Assembly (NCBI GenBank): GCA_018335585.1
Contig: JAGXRZ010000053.1
Coordinates: 89,189 to 124,091 of the forward strand
DNA from: Selenomonadales bacterium
GTDB lineage: Bacteria > Bacillota > UBA994
Length of the DNA stretch: 34,903 nt
Direction of reading: 5' to 3'
Part shown: positions 4,101-18,721 of the stretch, piece after piece
Position numbering within the stretch: the first letter of the stretch is position 1
Layout of the letters: the number at the start of each line of letters is the position of its first letter
The notes under the pieces: generated by a model
Database searches by the model: none
What the model was told of the DNA's origin: nothing
Seen by the model: only the letters and a program-made list of their open reading frames with translations
Made by a program: the position numbers and the translations under genes

Positions 4101-5226
4101 GTGTTAAATACTGTGGAACTGCGGCAACTAGCGGAACGACTCCAAGTTAAATGCCAAGAACTCCGGGGGTCTCTTTGACCTCGAAGTAAAGCAGGAGCGC
4201 ATAGCAGCACTAGAAGCACAAATGCTCGCGCCGGATTTTTGGCAGTCGCAGAGCGCAGCGCAAGCCGTACTCTCGCGCCTGTCGTCCTTGCGCGGCGAGG
4301 TCGATAACTACGCGGCACTCGCGCGCGAAGCGGATGATTTAACCGAGCTCATTGCTTTGGCCGAGGAGTTAAGTGACGAGGAGGCACTAAACGAGGCAGC
4401 GCGGCGCCTGCCGCAAGCTTTAGAGCGTGCCTCGCAGCTTGAACTCAGCCTTCTCCTCGCGGGCCCCTACGACAGCCATAACGCCATCCTAGAGCTTCAC
4501 CCCGGCGCAGGCGGTGTCGACTCGCAGGATTGGGCGGCTATGCTCATGCGCATGTATATACGCTACTGCGAGCGCGCCGGGTTCAACGTGGAAGTGCTCG
4601 ACTATCTTGCGGGGGAAGAAGCGGGCTTAAAGAGCGTGTCCCTCTTGGTAAAGGGCGACATGGCGTATGGATACCTGCAGGCCGAACGCGGCGTACACCG
4701 CTTAGTGCGGCTATCTCCTTTTGATGCCGCCAACCGCCGCCACACTTCTTTTGCCTCGGTCTCGGTCTTGCCGGAGATACCGGAGGACACCGAGGTGGAA
4801 ATCGACTTAGAAGACCTGCGCGTCGACACTTACCGCGCCAGCGGCGCCGGCGGGCAAAACGTCAACAAGACCGATTCGGCCGTGCGCATTACCCACGTGC
4901 CGACCGGGATTGTGGTGCAGTGCCAGAACGAGCGCTCGCAGCTTAACAATAAGTCTACGGCCATGAGGATGCTAAGAAGCAAGCTTGTGGAGCTGAAGTT
5001 GCGTGCCCAGCAGCAAGAAATCGACCGCCTGCGCGGCGACGCCGGCGAAATTGCCTGGGGCAACCAAATCAGGAGCTACGTCTTTCACCCCTATAATATG
5101 GTGAAAGACCATCGCACTAACACCGAGACCGGTAACGTCGGCGCGGTGATGGACGGCGCGCTCGACATGTTTATTGCGAGCTTCCTGCGTTGGCAGGCCG
5201 AGCGCAACCGCAGCGTCAAGGAATAA
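4101..5226 (+). CDS. prfB: peptide chain release factor 2, expressed by programmed +1 frameshift
   Basis: RF2 releases the nascent chain at UGA and UAA. The gene is in two frames. ORF1 starts at GTG 4101 (AAGGAGGA upstream) and reads 25 codons to CTT (4173-4175), then meets TGA (4176-4178). A +1 slip on CTT continues as GAC (4177-4179) and runs to TAA at 5226, giving about 374 residues. The junction [13 protein letters not shown] matches RF2 proteins. A GGGGG stretch just upstream of the CTT-TGA site is the internal Shine-Dalgarno that promotes slipping in the known RF2 system. The tripeptide anticodon SPF falls at about residues 205-207 and the catalytic GGQ at about 250-252, so this is RF2 rather than RF1. 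Annotating only the long frame (ATG 4222) would lose the first 40 residues and the autoregulation. Confidence 0.97.
4164..4179 (+). promoter_or_regulatory. RF2 programmed +1 frameshift site
   Basis: The site reads CGGGGGTCTCTTTGAC: an SD-like GGGGG, a 3-nt spacer, the CTT slippery codon, then TGA C. It differs from the well-known E. coli RF2 site at two positions outside the slip core. When RF2 is scarce, ribosomes pause at UGA and shift +1, so RF2 regulates its own synthesis. Confidence 0.95.
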
Positions 5227-5290
5227 TAAAGGGATTCCCCGCTCTCTGTGGAATATTCACGCAATGAACCTAAAGTCAGGGGGGAGTCGC

Positions 5291-5980
5291 GTGAAAAAAG
5301 TCGCTATAGTATTGTCTGTACTGCTGATTCTGTTGGTGCTGGCGGAGGTGTCGGCACCGCGCCTGATTGCGCGCGGGTTGGAGCTAGGGTTGCGGCGCAC
5401 TTTAGGCACCGATGTAGAGATTAAGTTAGACGCATATCCTTCGCTGCGGCTATTGCTTGGCCATTTCGAAGAGCTTAGCGTAGTAGCCCGCGGCGTCAAC
5501 CTTGGCGGCTTAACCGTCGAGGAGTACACCTTAGCGGCAGAGCAGGTCACGGTAAACCTGCGCGAGCTCTTGGCGCGGCGTGAGCTCAGGTTTGTCAATC
5601 AAGGGCGCCTTACCGTGCAGGTAACCGTGGCAGAAGGCGAATTAAGCAGCTTCCTGCGGGAGAAAATGCCCGCACTCAAGGACTGGCGCGTGCAGATTAA
5701 CGCCGGCAACGCGGTAGTTATCGGCAAGATTCCCCTACAGGCATTCGACCTTGACGTGCGCGTGCACGGCAAGTTCCAGGCCCTAGGGAAAGAGAAAATC
5801 GCTTTTGTGCCGGAACGCGCAGAGGTGCAAGGCGTTGAGCTTCCCGCCGCACTTGTGCAGGCTTTGCTGCAGGACGCTCAGTTCTACATCGACCTTAAAG
5901 CCGCGCCTATGCCGCTTGAGCTCATAGATGTTAAAATGGAACCCGGCAGACTTATCGTCCGCGCCCGCGTGCTCGACTGA
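5291..5980 (+). CDS. DUF2993 (LmeA-like) membrane-anchored protein
   Basis: The 229-residue protein starts with one hydrophobic helix (KKVAIVLSVLLILLVLAEV), which is a signal anchor. A DUF2993-like domain follows, with the family pattern of a basic amphipathic helix, a YPSLRLLLGHFEEL segment and repeated beta strands ending VKMEPGRLIVRARVLD. In actinobacteria the related LmeA binds phospholipid and acts on envelope glycolipids; the role in Bacillota is not settled, so only an envelope or lipid-binding role is inferred. GTG 5291 is chosen for the AGGGGGGA site 5 nt upstream; ATG 5264 is possible but has no good site. Its stop codon TGA lies at the left edge of the repeat cluster described below. 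Confidence 0.8.
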   Translation: MKKVAIVLSVLLILLVLAEVSAPRLIARGLELGLRRTLGTDVEIKLDAYPSLRLLLGHFEELSVVARGVNLGGLTVEEYTLAAEQVTVNLRELLARRELRFVNQGRLTVQVTVAEGELSSFLREKMPALKDWRVQINAGNAVVIGKIPLQAFDLDVRVHGKFQALGKEKIAFVPERAEVQGVELPAALVQALLQDAQFYIDLKAAPMPLELIDVKMEPGRLIVRARVLD

Positions 5981-6064
5981 AGCAAAAGGCGAAGCAAAAG
6001 GGACGGAGCTTTTTGCTTCACAAACAGGTGAGTGCCGGGAGGGTTCCTAGCTCCTAGCTGCTGG
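5979..6064. repeat. dispersed hairpin repeat, copy 1 (AAAAGGGACGG family)
   Basis: A 31-bp unit at 5991-6021 is identical to 9268-9298. Its arms GAAGCAAAA and TTTTGCTTC pair perfectly around a loop carrying GGGACGG. GAAGCAAAAGG is also partly duplicated just before it (5979-5989), overlapping the TGA stop of the DUF2993 gene. An 18-bp block at 6047-6064 (CTAGCTCCTAGCTGCTGG) is also shared with 9316-9333, so the whole stretch of about 75 bp is one repeat with internal divergence. Confidence 0.85.
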
Positions 6065-6287
6065 CTGGTTTACAGGAAGAACCGTCAGACGGTGCGAAAA
6101 GCCTTGATTTTGTGTAGGGACGTGCCTATGGCACGTCCGCGGACGTGCGAAACGCACGTCCCTACAACACCTTTGTCGCCTGCTGGTTTCTATCAGCAAG
6201 GGTTCGCCAGGTTTTCGCACACCCTACCGTCCCTTTTGGGTCTGGTAGCTGGACAGCCCCCCAAACTAGACTAGGTGGTGTACTTTT
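6022..6287. other. repeat-filled gap between the DUF2993 and DUF5693 genes
   Basis: No credible gene is seen. The palindrome at 6113-6166 is flanked by further imperfect inverted sequence: GACGGTGCGAAAAGCC near 6088-6103 faces GGTTTTCGCACACCCTACCGTC near 6210-6231. CCGTCCCTTTT (6227-6237) is another reverse copy of the AAAAGGGACGG core. The layout suggests one repeat nested inside another. No clear promoter was found, although the wall-polymer operon must start here or upstream. Confidence 0.6.
6113..6166. repeat. BIME/REP-like palindromic element
   Basis: Outer arms TGTAGGGACGTGC (6113-6125) and GCACGTCCCTACA (6154-6166) are perfect inverted repeats of 13 bp. The centre is a perfect 18-bp palindrome, GCACGTCCGCGGACGTGC (6131-6148). 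The sequence can also fold as two adjacent hairpins, GGACGTGCC-TAT-GGCACGTCC and GGACGTGCG-AAA-CGCACGTCC. No gene lies in it. Such GTAGGG palindromes are intergenic repeats in many bacteria. Confidence 0.85.
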
Positions 6288-8183
6288 TTGCGGAAAGTCG
6301 TGAGCCTAATCGCGCTCCTTGCCATAGTGGCCACGGGGCTAATCCTTGTGGAGCGACACCAAGTCGAAAGCGAAAATCGGCAAGTGGCGCTGTTTATGGA
6401 CGGCACCGAGCTCTTGTTCCGCTCCCGTCTGACAGGCCTCGACCTGCAGGCTTACCTGCACGAGCTCAAGGCAGCTGGCCTCTACGGGGTGGCGAGCCAC
6501 GTCGTGGCTCTGCGGGATATGGTGCCGCTAGGCGACATTGACATTCACGCGGCCGGGGCCGAAGCCCGCGCCGCTGCCGATGAGTTAGGGCTTAGGTGGC
6601 CTAATCCCACCCAAACTCTGCTCCACGTGAAGCGCCCCGAGCTGGTCGCCCCCCTTATCGCCTTGGTCGAGCGCTTGTCAGGCGATAGGCTGGAGACGAC
6701 TGTGTTTGGCCATGTGATATACACAGAAGTCCCCTACGAGCGCCTGCGCCGCGCCTCACTTGGCTTCCCCAAAGACTTGATGGCTGCGGTCCGTGCGGCC
6801 GGTCTTACTTTCCTGCCCGTGTTCTCTCCTTTTTCGGGCAGCACCGCCGCCGAGTTCGCAGCTTTTCTTGATACCGGCGAATTTGCCGGCGTAATGTTTA
6901 CCGGCAACCGCATTGCCGAAAACCTTGCGGGTAGCGACTTGCTCAGCGAAGTAATAGCACGGCGTGGGCTTACTTTCTATTGGTTGCAGCGCGCCGACAC
7001 ACTTAGGAGCTATGTGCCGCTTGAGGGTGTAGAAGACGTTCTCACCCCAACCACGCCCATTGTGCGTGCCTACCGCATTTCGCGCGCCGAGACTAACAAC
7101 CCGGCCGTCACGCCGGAAAACATGACGGCGCGGTGGATAAACTCGATTACCGACTATAACGTCCGCGCCATCTACATGCGGCCGTTCTTCCGCGAACCGG
7201 ACATCGCCTACAACACCCACTACACACGCTACTTGGTCGCGGCCGTAGAGCGCCTAGGCTTAACGCTAGGCTCGGCCACGGGGTTCCGCAGATTTTTCCC
7301 GCATCCTTTGCTGCAGGCCGGAGTAGGTCTTGGAATTGGGTTGTTGTGCTATCTGTTGGCACTAAAGGCCAAAATCCCGCGCGTCTTGGCAAATCTCGGG
7401 CTTGTTGGTGTCGCGCTTTTGCAGATTGGCCTTTTTACGCCGTGGGCGCTTTGGGTAAGGCTTGGGCTTGGGCTTATCGGTGCGGTAGCCGCAAGTTTTG
7501 CCGCACTGGCATTCTTTCGCGATTGGAAGTGCCCGTGGCAAGGCTTCTTCCTGATTAACTTAACGACCACGCTTCTAGCCTTGCTGGTGGCCAGCTACCT
7601 CAGCGACTGGGAGTTTATCAAGGAGTTCCATTATTTTCGCGGCGTGAAGGTGCAATACTCGCTGCCGATAGTGCTTTTTGCCGCTATGCTGTGGTTGCCG
7701 CGCCTCCGTCAACTGCCGCAGGAAATACTGGCCGAGATTCGCCGCTTTGGCCTGTGGAAGTCTTTAGCCGCAGTGCTCTTCCTCGGGGTGGTCTTCTACA
7801 TCTACCTGCGTCGCTCCGGCCACGCGCACGCCATAGGGCAGTTTGAGCTAAACTTGCGCTTCTGGCTAGATGAAGTCTTGGTGGCACGCCCGCGCTTTAA
7901 AGAAATGCTAGTGCACCCGGTGCTGCTGGTGGTTTTGTACTATCGCCAACGCCTGCCTCGCCTGATTATGGAGGGAGGCCTAGTGGCTTCCGTAATTGCA
8001 CAAGTCTCCATTGTCAATAGCTTTATGCACCTGCGCACGCCGCTGGCCATCTCTCTGTTGCGCGTTTTTCACGGGTTGTGGCTGGGCACACTACTTGGAC
8101 TAATGGCCCTAGGTGGAGTAGCCCTGCTGTGGAAGGGATATGAGGCCTATGTTGCGGGTGCGTGGAGGGCGGGCAAGCGATGA
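6288..8183 (+). CDS. DUF5693 family multi-pass membrane protein
   Basis: This 631-residue protein has one N-terminal membrane helix (about 2-20), a large probably extracytoplasmic domain (about 21-340), and then a run of about eight hydrophobic segments to the C-terminus. The pattern and sequence style fit DUF5693, a Bacillota family often found beside csaB; its biochemical role is unknown. The TTG at 6288 is chosen because AGGTGGTG lies about 8 nt upstream and the sequence begins with a normal signal anchor (RKVVSLIALLAIVATGL). Its TGA overlaps the ATG of the next gene (ATGA), so the two are translationally coupled. Context suggests assembly, export or control of a pyruvylated wall polymer. 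Confidence 0.75.
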   Translation: MRKVVSLIALLAIVATGLILVERHQVESENRQVALFMDGTELLFRSRLTGLDLQAYLHELKAAGLYGVASHVVALRDMVPLGDIDIHAAGAEARAAADELGLRWPNPTQTLLHVKRPELVAPLIALVERLSGDRLETTVFGHVIYTEVPYERLRRASLGFPKDLMAAVRAAGLTFLPVFSPFSGSTAAEFAAFLDTGEFAGVMFTGNRIAENLAGSDLLSEVIARRGLTFYWLQRADTLRSYVPLEGVEDVLTPTTPIVRAYRISRAETNNPAVTPENMTARWINSITDYNVRAIYMRPFFREPDIAYNTHYTRYLVAAVERLGLTLGSATGFRRFFPHPLLQAGVGLGIGLLCYLLALKAKIPRVLANLGLVGVALLQIGLFTPWALWVRLGLGLIGAVAASFAALAFFRDWKCPWQGFFLINLTTTLLALLVASYLSDWEFIKEFHYFRGVKVQYSLPIVLFAAMLWLPRLRQLPQEILAEIRRFGLWKSLAAVLFLGVVFYIYLRRSGHAHAIGQFELNLRFWLDEVLVARPRFKEMLVHPVLLVVLYYRQRLPRLIMEGGLVASVIAQVSIVNSFMHLRTPLAISLLRVFHGLWLGTLLGLMALGGVALLWKGYEAYVAGAWRAGKR

Positions 8184-9319
8184 AGGTGTTGCATATTAAC
8201 GGCGGCGGGGATACAGGTGGGGGCAAAAGCCACCTGCTTGCTCTGTTGCCGGAGCTCTGTAAACACGGCACCGAAGCAGAGCTTGCGGTCTTCTCTGACG
8301 GTTTGTTGGCAGAGGAGGCAGCCGCGCTCCGCGTGTCGGTCCATTGCCTTGGCGTTAAGCACATGATGTCGTTGACTCTGCTTAGGCGCCTCCGCCGCCT
8401 GCTCCTCACGCTCAAACCAGATATAGTACACACGCACGGCGGCCGGGCAAACTTCTATGGGCGTTTGGCCGCGCGGCTAGCCGGTATCCCGCTCGTGGTC
8501 ACCACGGTGCATAGCCACATTGATCTAGACTACGCGGCGCTCTTGCCTAACCTGTGGTTTTCCTCTGTCGACAAACTTACGCGGCCTTTAGCTGACCACT
8601 TTATTGCGGTCTCGCACGAGCTACGCACCACCCTGATTAGGCAGGGGATAGCGGGAGAGCGCATCAGCGTAGTGCACAATGGCATACCTGACGTATCGGT
8701 ATTGCCGCTCAAACTACAGGATGTGTTCGGGCTTACACCCGGTCCCGTGCTTTGCGCCGTGGGGCGATTGGTGCCCGTCAAACGCTTTGATATCTTGCTC
8801 AGGTCCATGCAGAGCGTACTGGCGCGTGTGCCGGAGTGCAAGCTTGTTATAGTCGGCGATGGACCACTAGAAGCGGAACTTAAGCACATGGCGGCAGAGC
8901 TTAACATCTCCCGCGCGGTAGTCTTTGCGGGCTATCGGCGCAATGCTAGAGCAATTATGGCCGGGGCAGATGTATTCGTCCTTTCTTCCGATATGGAGGG
9001 CCTGCCGATCGTTCTCCTGGAAGCACTTGCAGCCAAGGTGCCCATCGTCGCTACGGCCGTCGGCGGCATCCCGGAGATAATCGTGCCGCAGACCACCGGT
9101 CTTCTCGTCCCACCGCGTGACCCAGACAAACTCGCTGACGCAATAGTCCTCTCCCTACTCAATAGCGAGGCCTCCGCCTTGCGCGTAGAGGCAGGACATG
9201 CCTGGTTCAGCGCCCACGCCACCGCCCACGTCATGGCCGCAAAAACTGCCGCCGTCTACGCGCAGCTGAAGCAAAAGGGACGGAGCTTTTTGCTTCACGG
9301 GCAGGATGAGGGTTGCTAG
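8180..9319 (+). CDS. GT4-type glycosyltransferase with a repeat-derived C-terminus
   Basis: This 379-residue protein has the GT-B fold. The N-terminal half carries the loop INGGGDTGGGKSHLL and HTHGGRANFYGRLAARLAG. The C-terminal nucleotide-sugar domain has AVGRLVPVKRFD, the acidic EGLPIVLLEALAAKVPIVAT motif (E-x7-E), and AVGGIPEI. It is expected to add a sugar from a nucleotide donor to a lipid-linked wall polymer at the cytoplasmic membrane face. The start is the ATG in the ATGA overlap with the previous stop. The last residues, about QLKQKGRSFLLHGQDEGC, are encoded by the 31-bp hairpin repeat and its flank, so the natural end was probably near ..AAVYAQL. Donor and acceptor sugars are unknown. 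Confidence 0.9.
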   Translation: MKVLHINGGGDTGGGKSHLLALLPELCKHGTEAELAVFSDGLLAEEAAALRVSVHCLGVKHMMSLTLLRRLRRLLLTLKPDIVHTHGGRANFYGRLAARLAGIPLVVTTVHSHIDLDYAALLPNLWFSSVDKLTRPLADHFIAVSHELRTTLIRQGIAGERISVVHNGIPDVSVLPLKLQDVFGLTPGPVLCAVGRLVPVKRFDILLRSMQSVLARVPECKLVIVGDGPLEAELKHMAAELNISRAVVFAGYRRNARAIMAGADVFVLSSDMEGLPIVLLEALAAKVPIVATAVGGIPEIIVPQTTGLLVPPRDPDKLADAIVLSLLNSEASALRVEAGHAWFSAHATAHVMAAKTAAVYAQLKQKGRSFLLHGQDEGC

Positions 9320-9333
9320 CTCCTAGCTGCTGG
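9268..9333. repeat. dispersed hairpin repeat, copy 2, overlapping a coding 3' end
   Basis: The 31-bp hairpin unit (9268-9298) is identical to 5991-6021. It is followed by GGTT-CTAGCTCCTAGCTGCTGG-type sequence (to 9333) also shared with copy 1. It spans the stop codon of the glycosyltransferase gene (9317-9319). The copies differ by small insertions between the two shared blocks. Confidence 0.88.
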
Positions 9334-9352
9334 ATGTTGGCAGAGTAGACCC

Positions 9353-9380
9353 CGTGCTCCGTGCTTCGTGCTTCGTGCTT
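9353..9380. repeat. 7-bp tandem repeat (CGTGCTT x4)
   Basis: The order is CGTGCTC then three copies of CGTGCTT, head to tail, with no spacer. It lies in the gap between two glycosyltransferase genes, next to other repeats. Confidence 0.85.
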
Positions 9381-9420
9381 AGTAGAACGGCGGAGCGCGG
9401 GGCGTCGTGTAACTACATGA

Positions 9421-9470
9421 AACAAAAAGAACCGTCCCTTTTGTTTTCAGCTCATAGCTCAATGCTCACA
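9421..9470. repeat. inverted copy of the AAAAGGGACGG repeat plus AGCTCATAGCTC tail
   Basis: AAGAACCGTCCCTTTTGTT (9427-9445) is the exact reverse complement of 18633-18651. AACAAAA and TTTTGTT flank it and can pair. A tail CAGCTCATAGCTCAATGCTC resembles the CTAGCTCCTAGCTGCTGG tails of the other copies. The repeat stops just before the AGGAGG site of the next gene. Confidence 0.8.
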
Positions 9471-9482
9471 GGAGGTGCCGCC

Positions 9483-10622
9483 TTGCCTAAGCTGCCAGTT
9501 CGCACCATCGTGCTGTTTAGTGCCGTGCCTTGGGACGGCGTATTTGCACGCCCGCAGCAGCTTGCGCGCGGCTTTGTCGCTAATGGGGCGCGCGTCCTCT
9601 TTGTAGAGCCGAGCGCGAGTTTGCTTGCTCCGCTAAAGCGGCGGGAGTTGGCCAAGCATCCGTTTGGCAGTTCGCCGCGCTTTACCGAGGATGCCTTAGC
9701 CGTAGTTACCCCGCCGCTAGCGTTGCCGGGAGGGTACGCCGCCCGCGCCGTGAACAAGCTGAACCAAGCCTATCTCGCACGGTTCCTCCGGCGAGCGCTG
9801 CGTGAACTTGGGTGGCGTCCTACCGCAGTGTTGACACACCTGCCCGGCACGGCGGACTTCCCCGCACCGTGGCCGCTTGCCTACGACTGTGTGGATGACC
9901 ACGCCGCCTTTGCCGAGCTGTCGCCCCTGTGGCGGCGTGAGACTGTGCTGGCGATGGAGCAGGACCTCTTGCGGCGCGCGCGCTGCGTATATGCTTCCGC
10001 TGACGCTTTGGTTAAGCACTGTCAGAGGGTGCGGCCTGATACGCGGTATGTCGGAAACGGAGCGGCAGTCGCGCACTTTGCCACGGCTGCGAAGGGCAAA
10101 ACCGGCGCAAGCGGATTGGCAGGCCCGGTGATTGGCTTCTACGGCGGCCTCGGACCCTGGGTTGACGTCTCTTTAGTGTGCGAGGCGGCATTACTTGCGC
10201 CCGACCTAAGCTTTTTGCTGATTGGCCCCATCGAACTAGGTCTCCCGTGGCCTAAGCTTCCACCTAACGTGCACCACCGCGGCTTGACCCCTTACAGAGA
10301 ATTGCCGCGCTACCTTGCCGACTTTGATGTGGCGCTGATCCCGTTCAAAGACACGCCGGTGACACAAAGTGTAAATCCTATCAAGCTGTACGAGTACTTT
10401 GCCGCCGGGAAGCCGGTGCTGGTTACTTCTTTGCCTGAGCTGACGCGTTGGGAGGGCCTAGTCTACCCATTCTCGACAGCAGAAGAGCTGATACGCAGAG
10501 CGCGTGCTGCCCTAACAGAAGAACCGACGCTCGCGGCCAAGCGCCAGGCAGTCGCAGCGCAGCATACCTGGGAAGCAAAAGTCAGGGAGATGGAAGACTT
10601 AATGCGGGTGCATGGCATGTGA
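9483..10622 (+). CDS. TuaH-like GT-B glycosyltransferase
   Basis: The TTG at 9483 is chosen: CAGGAGGTG lies about 7 nt upstream and the protein then starts at the first beta strand (LPKLPVRTIVLFSAVPWDG), giving 379 residues. The frame is open further upstream, but that part is repeat DNA. Features are PWDGVFARPQQLARGF near the N-terminus, YDCVDDHAAF in the linker, FYGGLGPWVD at the start of the second Rossmann domain, and SVNPIKLYEYFAAGKPVL near the C-terminus, a pattern seen in TuaH-type transferases of teichuronic-acid-like polymers. It is predicted to be cytoplasmic and membrane-associated. The stop overlaps the next start (GTGA), coupling it to csaB. Substrate is not known. Confidence 0.85.
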   Translation: MPKLPVRTIVLFSAVPWDGVFARPQQLARGFVANGARVLFVEPSASLLAPLKRRELAKHPFGSSPRFTEDALAVVTPPLALPGGYAARAVNKLNQAYLARFLRRALRELGWRPTAVLTHLPGTADFPAPWPLAYDCVDDHAAFAELSPLWRRETVLAMEQDLLRRARCVYASADALVKHCQRVRPDTRYVGNGAAVAHFATAAKGKTGASGLAGPVIGFYGGLGPWVDVSLVCEAALLAPDLSFLLIGPIELGLPWPKLPPNVHHRGLTPYRELPRYLADFDVALIPFKDTPVTQSVNPIKLYEYFAAGKPVLVTSLPELTRWEGLVYPFSTAEELIRRARAALTEEPTLAAKRQAVAAQHTWEAKVREMEDLMRVHGM

Positions 10623-16613: not shown

Positions 16614-17493
16614 ACCTCGCACCTTCGGCTATTTCTTTCAGTCTGCGGGCAGTAGCCTGATTCGCAACAGCTGGATGACGCTTGCCTCCATCGGCACTGT
16701 AGCCGTCGCTCTTTTGGTGCTTGGTGTTTTTATGCTGCTCGCGGTAAACATCGGCGCCATGGCTGCGCAAGTTGAAGAACAAGTCGAGCTTACCGCTTAC
16801 CTAGCCGACCTTAGCAGTCAGGAACGAGCTAGGCTGGAAAACGAGCTTAAAGCCATACCGGGCGTAGCCGCGGTTACCTTCGTCTCGCGGGAGGAAGCTT
16901 GGCAGCGCTTACTGGAGTGGTATGGCGAAGACCGCAACTTTCTCGCCGGGTGGGAGGAAGATAACCCGCTGCGCGAAGCCTTTGAGGTGCGCGCGGATTC
17001 TGCCTTCCGCATAGCGGATATTGCCAAGGCCGTAGCAGAGGTGCGCGGCGTCGAGGAAGTAGTTTACGGACGCGAAATCGTAGAGCAGCTTCTCTCTATT
17101 ACCCGCGCCGTGCGCCTGGTAGGGATAGGACTGATGGCGGGGTTAGCGCTCGCGGCCACGTTTATTATCGCTAACACCATCAGAATTACCGTGTTTGCGC
17201 GGCGCAGGGAAATCAGCATCATGCGTTACGTCGGCGCAACAGCCTGGTTCGTCCGCTGGCCCTTTGTTATCGAGGGGTTAGCACTTGGGATAATCGGCGC
17301 CATATTGGCTTCCTCGGTGCTGGCGTGGGGGTATTACTTTGCGGTGCGGTCGTTAGCCGCCGCCATTCCCTTTTGGCCCTTTGTCGCTCCCTGGCCGCTT
17401 TTGCAGCGCTTAGCGTTAGCGCTGGTTGGGCTTGGCGCGCTCATCGGTGTAGCCGGCAGCGGGATGTCCGTGCGACGTTATTTAGACGTGTAG
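16606..17493 (+). CDS. ftsX: cell division membrane protein FtsX
   Basis: FtsX is the four-pass membrane partner of FtsE. The 295-residue protein has one N-terminal helix (about 25-50), an extracytoplasmic domain of about 120 residues that should contact the murein hydrolase, then three helices ending with SGMSVRRYLDV. Conserved landmarks are the extracellular LKAIPGVAAVTFVSREEAW segment and FARRREISIMRYVGATAWFVRWPFVIEG. ATG 16606 is chosen; a GTG at 16597 lies too close to the GAGGAG ribosome site. Confidence 0.95.
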   Translation: MVKPRTFGYFFQSAGSSLIRNSWMTLASIGTVAVALLVLGVFMLLAVNIGAMAAQVEEQVELTAYLADLSSQERARLENELKAIPGVAAVTFVSREEAWQRLLEWYGEDRNFLAGWEEDNPLREAFEVRADSAFRIADIAKAVAEVRGVEEVVYGREIVEQLLSITRAVRLVGIGLMAGLALAATFIIANTIRITVFARRREISIMRYVGATAWFVRWPFVIEGLALGIIGAILASSVLAWGYYFAVRSLAAAIPFWPFVAPWPLLQRLALALVGLGALIGVAGSGMSVRRYLDV

Positions 17494-17504
17494 GAGGCGG
17501 GAAG

Positions 17505-18632
17505 ATGTTAAAGCGAATTCTGGCGGCGTTAGCGGTTGGCTTATTACTTCTACCGCTGGGCGTGGAAGCAACTACAGACCTCGAGGCTAGGCAGCGCGAA
17601 CGCCGTCAAGTGCAACAGCGCATGCAGGAAGCCGAACGGCGCGCCGCGGCAGCCGACCGGCAGGCAAGGAGCGTGCTCGGGGAACTGCAGACCATCGAGC
17701 GAAATATCGACCGCACTACGGCGGAGATACGCACGCTTGAGAGCAGGTTGCGCACCGCCGAGAGCGAGCTGCGGCGACTGACGCGGGAGCTAGACGACGC
17801 ATCGCGGCGTTTAGCGACGCGTAACGCACAGCTTGGCCTGCGCCTGCGAGCCTTGCATGAACGCGGCGCCGTGAGCTACCTGGAGGTGCTGTTCCAAGCC
17901 CGCAGTTTCGCCGACTTTATTAGCCGCTTTAGCCTGTTGCGGATGGTGATAAATCAGGATATCGCAATTTACCACGCAGTGCAAGAGGAACGTACCATCG
18001 TCGCCGAGCGCCGCGAAGAGGCCGAGGAGCGGCGCGCGGAAATTGCTTCGCTGCGCTCCGAAAAACAAGTACAACAGACTAGCCTGCAAAGCCGCGCCGC
18101 AAGTCGCACCGCTATTCTTAACAGCCTAAACCAGGACAAGCAGGCGGCGATTCGCGCTTACAACGAGCTCAACCGTCTAGCGGAAGAACTAGACCGCGTC
18201 ATCCGAGAGTTAGAGGCGCGTAACCGCGGCGTAGGCACAGGCACCTTTACTTGGCCTGTCCCGGGCAATACCCGCATTACCTCACCCTTTGGCTGGCGAG
18301 TACACCCTATCTTCCGCACGCGGGAGTTTCACAGCGGCATTGACATCGGGGCTCCTAGCGGACGCAACATCGTGGCTTCTGACGGGGGCACGGTGCTGTG
18401 GGCGGATTGGCTTGGCGGTTACGGCAGGACGGTTATCATCAGTCACGGCAACTTTTCCACCCTCTATGCCCATGCCAGCACCTTGTTGGTGGAGGAAGGG
18501 GACAAGGTGACCAAGGGCCAAGTAATAGCGCGTGTAGGCAGCACCGGGCACAGCACCGGACCGCACCTGCACTTTGAGGTGCGCAACCAAGCCGGTACGC
18601 GCCTAAACCCAAGCGACCACGTACGTCCCTAG
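17505..18632 (+). CDS. EnvC-like murein hydrolase with coiled coil and M23 (LytM) domain
   Basis: The 375-residue protein has a signal peptide (about 1-22), long coiled coils (about 25-120 and 160-240), and a C-terminal LytM/M23 domain (about 250-375). Unlike E. coli EnvC, whose LytM domain is degenerate, the zinc and catalytic residues are all present: H276 and D280 (HSGID) and H354/H356 (HLHFE). It may therefore cut peptidoglycan peptide bridges itself, controlled by FtsEX through the coiled coil, as in PcsB/CwlO-type systems. The ATG at 17505 follows TAGGAGGCG and begins 12 nt after ftsX. An earlier in-frame start inside ftsX is not credible. Confidence 0.93.
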   Translation: MLKRILAALAVGLLLLPLGVEATTDLEARQRERRQVQQRMQEAERRAAAADRQARSVLGELQTIERNIDRTTAEIRTLESRLRTAESELRRLTRELDDASRRLATRNAQLGLRLRALHERGAVSYLEVLFQARSFADFISRFSLLRMVINQDIAIYHAVQEERTIVAERREEAEERRAEIASLRSEKQVQQTSLQSRAASRTAILNSLNQDKQAAIRAYNELNRLAEELDRVIRELEARNRGVGTGTFTWPVPGNTRITSPFGWRVHPIFRTREFHSGIDIGAPSGRNIVASDGGTVLWADWLGGYGRTVIISHGNFSTLYAHASTLLVEEGDKVTKGQVIARVGSTGHSTGPHLHFEVRNQAGTRLNPSDHVRP

Positions 18633-18651
18633 AACAAAAGGGACGGTTCTT
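18633..18651. repeat. AAAAGGGACGG repeat core after the M23 gene
   Basis: AACAAAAGGGACGGTTCTT is a perfect inverted match to 9427-9445. It begins directly after the stop codon of the M23 gene, the same position relative to a gene end as copies 1 and 2. Confidence 0.85.
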
Positions 18652-18721
18652 CCTGGAAACTCTTCTTGGCGGCACCTCATGTAAAAGCCTTCCTATACAC
18701 ATGCGGTCTATTCCGCACTAG

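What the first reader, a model, noticed from the sequence alone, without database searches (positions are those of the whole stretch)
5979..9445. Family of AAAAGGGACGG hairpin repeats at gene ends
The core occurs at 5996, 6227 (inverted), 9273, 9431 (inverted) and 18637, always outside genes or at their 3' ends. Several copies have A-rich and T-rich arms that pair around the core, and CTAGCTCCTAGCTGCTGG or AGCTCATAGCTC tails. They may be mobile non-coding elements that also act as terminators.
Basis: seen in the sequence. Interest (0 to 1): 0.5.

Follow-up and report, generated by a model that had tools for sequence, protein, structure and literature searches.

The report
Transposase-linked hairpin repeats in a Bacillota
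The repeated AAAAGGGACGG hairpins are very probably tiny non-coding mobile elements, of the REP kind, that were spread at gene ends by two matching transposases of the same genome; their fixed tag sits in the loop of the hairpin, not at its foot as in the best-known REPs.

Summary
The core is real: 5 exact copies in the window (0.47 expected), 127 in the 2.34 Mb genome. 118 of the 127 belong to two 29-31 nt hairpins, A (..GGGACGGTTC..) and B (..GGGACGGAGC..). The genome holds RAYT-type (Y1/HUH) transposase genes bounded by inverted A or inverted B hairpins. A third family, C, has no RAYT found here but bounds one in two genomes of another genus. Across Bacillota, RAYTs of this kind are flanked by hairpins with the same GGGAC loop and arms that differ yet keep pairing. 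All three window sites lack the hairpin in sister species; of seven sites tested, four do, and three are older in the genus. The 6227 copy is the end of another repeat. The tails are heptanucleotide tandem repeats, a separate feature of the genus, not associated with the hairpins. A terminator scan gives nothing at four of the five cores, but B hairpins cluster on the sense strand at stop codons. Differences from known REPs: no 5' GTAG foot, invariant loop tag, mostly single hairpins rather than REPIN doublets, and RAYTs resembling subclass 2.1, for which no REP-like sequences had been reported. New variant of a known kind.

The parts
5991..6019 (+). B hairpin GAAGCAAAA-GGGACGGAGCT-TTTTGCTTC, 9/9 arm pairs, followed by the AC that 3' ends of B copies favour
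5979..6001 (+). 12-nt partial duplication of the B left arm in front of the hairpin (the TGA stop of ORF 5174-5980 overlaps its start)
9268..9296 (+). B hairpin, 9/9 arm pairs; lies in the last codons of the glycosyltransferase ORF 8162-9319
9419..9447 (-). A hairpin AAAACAAAA-GGGACGGTTCT-TTTTGTTTC, 8/9 arm pairs, inverted relative to 9268-9296
18631..18659 (+). degenerate A hairpin (3/9 arm pairs) overlapping the stop codon of the M23 peptidase gene 17325-18632
6227..6237 (-). core match that is not an A/B hairpin: end of another dispersed repeat
6082..6234 (.). dispersed repeat of about 153 bp with further copies elsewhere in the genome; holds a 54-bp palindrome (6113-6166)
6045..6059 (+). 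heptamer array TCCTAGC (the CTAGCTCC 'tail'), not part of the hairpin
9353..9380 (+). heptamer array CGTGCTT, 4 units

Best explanation
The AAAAGGGACGG repeats are REP-type mobile hairpins of about 29-31 nt, spread through ssDNA by cognate RAYT transposases (Y1 HUH nucleases with a C-terminal HTH-like extension). RAYT-A works on A hairpins and RAYT-B on B hairpins. Each RAYT probably recognises the folded hairpin through its paired arms, which are specific to the lineage, and its invariant GGGAC(GG) loop tag, cuts the strand near the foot and inserts copies, many of which survive beside stop codons. Shown: the copies, the gene-flanking inverted hairpins, the match between transposase type and hairpin type, the covarying arms, and sites that lack the hairpin in sister species. 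Inferred: that the RAYT binds and moves them, that the loop is what it reads, and where it cuts.
For: 127 exact cores against 3 for the control pattern: A 16-mer 45 exact, B 16-mer 73 exact. RAYT-A (C33/C52) lies between inverted A hairpins, RAYT-B (C60, C64) between inverted B hairpins. The RAYT match REP_Tyr_transpos (A over the cut-off, B below it), E. coli TnpAREP by sequence (4er8, the only PDB match at E up to 0.01) and by fold (4er8 is the top hit for a relative from the genus). Family C: 26 exact copies, 49 with up to 2 mismatches, here without a RAYT of its own; C ends flank a RAYT in G006 and G007. In 50 RAYT loci there are 89 inward-pointing GGGAC[GA][GT] motifs, at 40 loci (25 on both sides), against 14 outward at 10 loci (2 on both sides); requiring a stem of at least 5 pairs, 32 of 51 loci have an inward hairpin and 7 an outward one. 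Outer-arm pairing in the 77 distinct inward motifs: 260 of 462 cells against 107-143 when slid and 147 +- 10 when shuffled (0 of 2000). RAYT and hairpin distances correlate over 26 loci (r 0.39, 0 of 5000). Core copies are many only in the genus: 127, 39, 41, 24, against 0-7 in 37 other genomes. Window sites lack the hairpin in 2 of 2, 3 of 3 and 2 of 2 relatives that could be judged.
Against: No movement, binding or cutting was observed. Absence in relatives could in part be deletion. Two of seven sites outside the RAYT flanks carry the hairpin in all three relatives and a third in two of them (47 with 64), so not all copies are recent. The 26 loci were chosen for at least 5 of 9 arm pairs. 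10 of 50 RAYT loci show no inward motif, among them two at 56-59% identity to the RAYT here (L108, L109). The 14 outward motifs also pair above their slid versions (46 of 84 against 16-26), so hairpins near RAYT are not all inward. B-type RAYT score below the NCBIfam cut-off. RAYT-A may be one locus: its C33 and C52 copies are identical over 2269 bp up to the end of contig C52, and C60/C64 also share flanking sequence.
Confidence: 0.85

Rival explanations
1. The hairpins are ordinary transcription terminators or mRNA 3'-end stabilisers, kept by selection and not mobile.
For: B copies sit on the sense strand at stop codons: 34 of 69 have a sense stop within -20..+60 of the core, against 6 with an antisense stop there; tandem copies lie in the sense of the upstream gene in 34 of 41 cases. 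The sense RNA hairpin of B is stronger (-14.1 against -9.1 kcal/mol). Two of seven sites are conserved in all three relatives of the genus, a third in two (47 with 64). One core, 18636, overlaps a terminator-like call.
Against: Near-identical primary sequence in dozens of copies, the match to RAYT flanks, sites without the hairpin in sister species, no terminator-like call at the four cores between 5979 and 9447.
Confidence: 0.1
2. The true mobile unit is a REPIN doublet (two inverted hairpins), and single hairpins are decayed remains, as proposed for Pseudomonas. This is a variant of the best explanation, not exclusive of it.
For: Neighbours within 120 nt are 15 '+-', 0 '-+' and 12 in the same sense over A, B and C; RAYT genes lie between inverted pairs.
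Against: 63 of 69 B copies have no B neighbour within 120 nt, yet 58 of 69 have all nine arm pairs; no sequence beyond the 3' dinucleotide is shared around B copies.
Confidence: 0.3
3. The hairpins are leftover ends (solo terminal repeats) of full RAYT elements that inserted and then lost the gene.
For: Ends and dispersed copies are the same sequence.
Against: No RAYT match lies on the window's contig C53, and relatives have only 15-29 bp at sites 2 and 3; only 2-4 RAYT copies against more than 100 hairpins.
Confidence: 0.05

Closest known systems
REP/BIME elements with RAYT (TnpAREP) of E. coli and Pseudomonas
   Same: Short dispersed hairpins mostly at gene edges; Y1 HUH transposase gene bounded by inverted copies; cognate pairing; sequence and fold match to 4er8
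   Different: No GTAG/GTGG foot (3 of 69 B and 1 of 54 A copies have one within 6 nt); invariant tag in the loop; of the residues tied to GTAG reading in E. coli, W94, E100, H101 and R104 differ here, Q95 is kept (alignment, placed by eye, with PMC6006769)
REPINs (PMC3116915, passages read)
   Same: Close neighbours are often inverted '+-' pairs, never '-+'
   Different: Singlets dominate: 87 of 112 exact A/B copies have no other such copy within 300 nt; in P. fluorescens SBW25, 18% were singlets and 61% doublets
TIRYT/TIRtrons (PMC3733652), equated with TnpAREP subclass 2.1 in PMC6006769
   Same: Y---NP motif, long C-terminal HTH-like extension, gene between inverted repeats with a G-rich motif; PMC3733652 reports moderately abundant TIR families, one of them self-complementary
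   Different: PMC6006769 reports no REP-like sequence near subclass 2.1 genes; the published motif is GGGGWSAS, here GGGACGG with hairpin arms and more than 100 copies
CGTC-tagged REPs (PMC3733652)
   Same: The complement of the tag holds CGTC
   Different: CGTC lies in the loop, not at an unpaired end; those REPs had no transposase

Membership tests
REP element with cognate RAYT | 20-40 nt palindrome, high copy number, extragenic | tested here: met
   127 cores; folds better than shuffles, z -3.2 to -4.4 for typed A and B hairpins; mostly at gene edges on crude gene calls, 42 of 112 inside a called ORF
REP element with cognate RAYT | Y1 HUH transposase gene flanked by inverted copies | tested here: met
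   Pfam Y1_Tnp; HUH and Y---NP motifs
REP element with cognate RAYT | 5' GTAG/GTGG tetranucleotide at the hairpin foot | tested here: not met
   3 of 69 B and 1 of 54 A copies within 6 nt
REP element with cognate RAYT | RAYT residues tied to GTAG reading (W94, Q95, E100, H101, R104 of E. coli, per PMC6006769) | tested here: not met
   alignment to 4er8: Q95 kept, the other four differ (numbering placed by eye)
REP element with cognate RAYT | Movement by the RAYT | not testable with these tools
   only indirect: sites without the hairpin in sister species
REPIN | Replicative unit is an inverted doublet | tested here: not met
   no neighbour of the own family within 120 nt: B 63 of 69, A 31 of 56; met only in that 15 close pairs are '+-' and none '-+'
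TnpAREP subclass 2.1 / TIRYT | C-terminal HTH-like extension after the Y1 core | tested here: inconclusive
   Helices 183-259 in the model; weak HTH matches, the commonest family in 4 of 12 members, best E 0.0013
TnpAREP subclass 2.1 / TIRYT | Place in the published subclass tree | not tested
   reference sequences were not at hand
TnpAREP subclass 2.1 / TIRYT | TIR motif GGGGWSAS | tested here: not met
   Loop GGGAC in 26 of 26 chosen loci, then G in 24 and A in 2
Intrinsic terminator | G+C-rich stem followed by T-tract | tested here: not met
   None at the four cores between 5979 and 9447; one terminator-like call at 18624-18645 overlaps the fifth

The most novel reading that the evidence does not exclude
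A RAYT lineage of Bacillota mobilises single 29-31 nt hairpins, recognised by an invariant GGGAC loop tag plus arms that evolve freely by compensatory change, so that the complete mobile unit is one hairpin and not a REPIN doublet; the RAYT class thought to lack REPs would then have them, with a different code of recognition.
Probability: 0.4. Interest if true: 0.65.

Novelty: new variant of a known kind. Interest (0 to 1): 0.5.

Why it matters
In the papers seen here, RAYT/REP systems are described mainly with GTAG-footed hairpins. Three hairpin families with three matching RAYT types in one bacterial family, and arms that covary across species around a fixed loop, give a natural mutant series for how a Y1 HUH nuclease reads a hairpin. 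It would also assign a REP population to a RAYT class for which PMC6006769 found none, and it questions whether the doublet is always the replicative unit. If the sense-strand clustering at stop codons is functional, it is a route by which mobile hairpins become mRNA 3' ends.

Tried and rejected
The tails as part of the element: rejected as a rule. In contigs C40, C52 and C53, 1 of 21 intergenic regions with a hairpin and 13 of 127 without one hold a heptamer array (Fisher p 0.69); 4 of 33 hairpins there lie within 150 nt of an array. Lagging-strand orientation bias: not supported (A 16 same, 13 opposite to the local majority gene strand; B 14 and 10). Rfam: nothing relevant in 5900-9600 (one sub-threshold match). 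The C46 Y1_Tnp match is a partial IS200/IS605-type gene beside an ORF that looks TnpB-like by eye, with no hairpin seen. Literature: the listings (some capped: 30 of 2,806 papers, 15 of 54, 20 of 23) showed no report of GGGACGG-loop REPs or of REPs with RAYT in Bacillota; Bertels et al. 2017 is not held and enters here only through PMC6006769. Of the papers I read the abstract and sections 6 and 16 of PMC3733652, and passages of PMC6006769, PMC3116915 and PMC4692102; a term search of PMC2817692 for Firmicutes, Clostridi, GGAC and similar gave nothing.

Limits: 644 kb of the 2.34 Mb genome were read, partly chosen around hairpins, so counts on pairs, gene context, arms and heptamers are for that sample. 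Gene calls are crude longest-ORF calls. Rows dropped: 7 duplicate RAYT loci (6), and identical arms within (89 to 77), loci with fewer than 5 of 9 arm pairs. Sites C53:61938, 63562 and 65543 could not be judged. The C53:77610 site was judged from match coordinates, not from an alignment. At C64:3659 the hairpin beside that gene in G002 is the right-end hairpin of its RAYT, so G002 was not counted there. A first count of loci with inward motifs (36) was taken after identical arms had been dropped; one search gives 40 of 50.
Full report
The observation. Five exact AAAAGGGACGG cores lie in the window at 5996+, 6227-, 9273+, 9432- and 18636+ (0.47 expected, 0 of 100 shuffles with five), and 127 lie in the genome (control 3). 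118 of the 127 belong to two hairpins. B is GAAGCAAAA-GGGACGGAGCY-TTTTGCTTC (16-mer: 73 exact, 81 with up to two mismatches, control 4). A is roughly RAAACAAAA-GGGACGGTTCT-TYTTGTTTY (16-mer: 45 exact, 59 with up to two mismatches, control 0; consensus by eye). Of 69 B copies read, 58 have all nine arm pairs and 39 are one identical 29-mer; A copies are more worn. Around B copies only two bases 3' of the foot are shared (A 48 of 69, then C 46 of 69), nothing clear 5' of it. The window copies at 5996 and 9273 are B, 9432 is A, 18636 is a worn A, and 6227 is the end of another repeat.

The transposases. PF01797 gives five matches in the genome. Four are RAYT-like genes: C33 and C52 (identical over 2269 bp up to the end of contig C52, possibly one locus seen twice) and C60 and C64 (a second type, 42-43% identical to the first). 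The C33/C52 gene is bounded on both sides by inverted A hairpins, the C60/C64 genes by inverted B hairpins. The fifth match, C46, is a partial IS200/IS605-type gene. RAYT-A passes the NCBIfam cut-off for REP-associated tyrosine transposase (85.1 against 80 bits), RAYT-B does not (65.1). By sequence the only PDB relative at E up to 0.01 is E. coli TnpAREP 4er8 (E 0.0005); the predicted fold of the RAYT of L041, a relative of RAYT-B (261 aa, mean pLDDT 87.5), has 4er8 as best match.

Relatives. Within the genus the core is abundant (127, 39, 41 and 24 in four genomes); in the 37 other genomes it occurs 0-7 times, although RAYT homologues occur in 19 of the 41, the own genome included. In the 50 RAYT loci examined, 89 GGGAC[GA][GT] motifs within about 450 nt point inward, at 40 loci (25 with both sides), and 14 point outward, at 10 loci (2 with both sides). 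Ten loci have no inward motif, among them L108 and L109, whose RAYT are 59 and 56% identical to one of the RAYT here. Without selection for pairing, the outer arms of the 77 distinct inward motifs pair in 260 of 462 cells (107-143 when slid; 147 +- 10 when partners are shuffled; 0 of 2000). The 14 outward motifs also pair above their slid versions (46 of 84 against 16-26). So the loop stays and the arms change together. Over 26 loci with at least 5 of 9 pairs, GGGAC is invariant and RAYT distance correlates with hairpin distance (r 0.39, 0 of 5000 permutations). Family C (TGTCG..GGGACGGAGGA..CGACA) has 26 exact copies here and 49 with up to two mismatches (18 of these with two, several in the form CTGACGG), and no RAYT of its own was found in this genome, while in G006 and G007, of another genus of the family, C hairpins bound a RAYT.

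Site occupancy. Site 1 (window 5971-6278) lacks the hairpin in G002 and G003, where other heptamer arrays stand instead; G001 could not be judged there. Site 2 (9258-9482) is 211-223 bp here and 29, 27 and 15 bp in G002, G003 and G001. Site 3 (18636) is 91 bp here and 29 bp in G002 and G003. C64:4499 lacks the hairpin in G001 (35 bp) and G002 (98 bp with heptamers). Against this, C64:6813 and C53:77610 (coordinates) carry the hairpin in all three relatives, and C64:3659 in G001 and G003, while in G002 the hairpin at that place is the RAYT's own right end. So of seven sites outside the RAYT flanks, four are lineage-specific as far as could be judged and three are older in the genus. The hairpins flanking RAYT-B on C64 are also present beside the RAYT in G002 (left, 1112) and G003 (right, 2184), so RAYT-B looks vertically inherited at one locus.

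Arrangement. Within 120 nt, neighbouring A, B and C hairpins are '+-' 15 times, '-+' never, and in the same sense 12 times. Yet most copies are alone: 87 of 112 exact A/B copies have no other such copy within 300 nt. In REPINs the doublet is taken as the replicative unit (18% singlets in SBW25; PMC3116915, passages read). Here nearly unworn singlets without a shared flank suggest that one hairpin can be the unit, at least for B; this is inference. B copies sit at stop codons on the sense strand (34 of 69 with a sense stop within -20..+60, 6 with an antisense one). I found no bias relative to the local majority gene strand, so the orientation goes with the neighbouring gene. The sense RNA of B folds better (-14.1 against -9.1 kcal/mol). 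A role at mRNA 3' ends is possible; termination in the classical sense is not supported at the four cores between 5979 and 9447, while a terminator-like site overlaps the one at 18636.

Mechanism. Most likely each RAYT reads its own hairpin in single-stranded DNA through the arms and the loop tag, cuts near the foot and pastes copies. The gene organisation, the cognate pairing, covariation and occupancy are shown; binding, cutting and the reading of the loop are inferred from the homology to TnpAREP.

Novelty. It works like REP/RAYT but fails the GTAG-foot test (4 of 123 copies). The RAYT resemble subclass 2.1 (TIRYT) in motif and extension, for which PMC6006769 reports no REP-like sequences and PMC3733652 reports inverted repeats with GGGGWSAS and some moderately abundant families. 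Placement in the published tree was not tested. I call it a new variant of a known kind. That I know of no earlier report rests on the listings only.

The tails. CTAGCTCC.., AGCTCATAGCTC.. and CGTGCTT.. belong to a striking excess of heptanucleotide tandem arrays: 141 arrays of period 7, with 51 unit types, against 9 of period 6 and 3 of period 8 in 644 kb. They were seen in all four genomes of the genus (2, 5 and 7 arrays in 18-20 kb of G001-G003), with 2 arrays in about 298 kb of twelve other genomes sampled. They do not co-occur with hairpins beyond chance. Heptameric excess is known from Xanthomonas and Nostoc (PMC4692102, passages read).

Noticed in passing
window 6045-6059, 9353-9380; G000 in general, e.g. 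C60:2038-2249, C64:6467-6783: Great excess of 7-nt tandem arrays (141 of period 7 against 9 of period 6 and 3 of period 8 in 644 kb), 51 unit types, strung together in patchwork islands; at site 1 different heptamers fill the same intergenic gap in sister species.
   Followed up: partly
window 6082-6234 with palindrome 6113-6166: Dispersed repeat of about 153 bp (several further copies at 81-94% identity) with a 54-bp palindrome that has dozens of matches in the genome.
   Followed up: no
G000 family C, e.g. C40:3291, C53:54070: Third GGGACGG hairpin family, 26 exact copies and 49 with up to 2 mismatches, no RAYT of its own found here; cognate RAYT in G006 C3 and G007 C124.
   Followed up: partly
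window 5979-6001; L181: Partial duplications of the left arm in front of hairpins (CAAAAG in the 24 nt upstream of 22 of 112 copies, 6 downstream, 4 for the reversed control); in G001 pairs of cores 15 bp apart.
   Followed up: partly
   Followed up: partly
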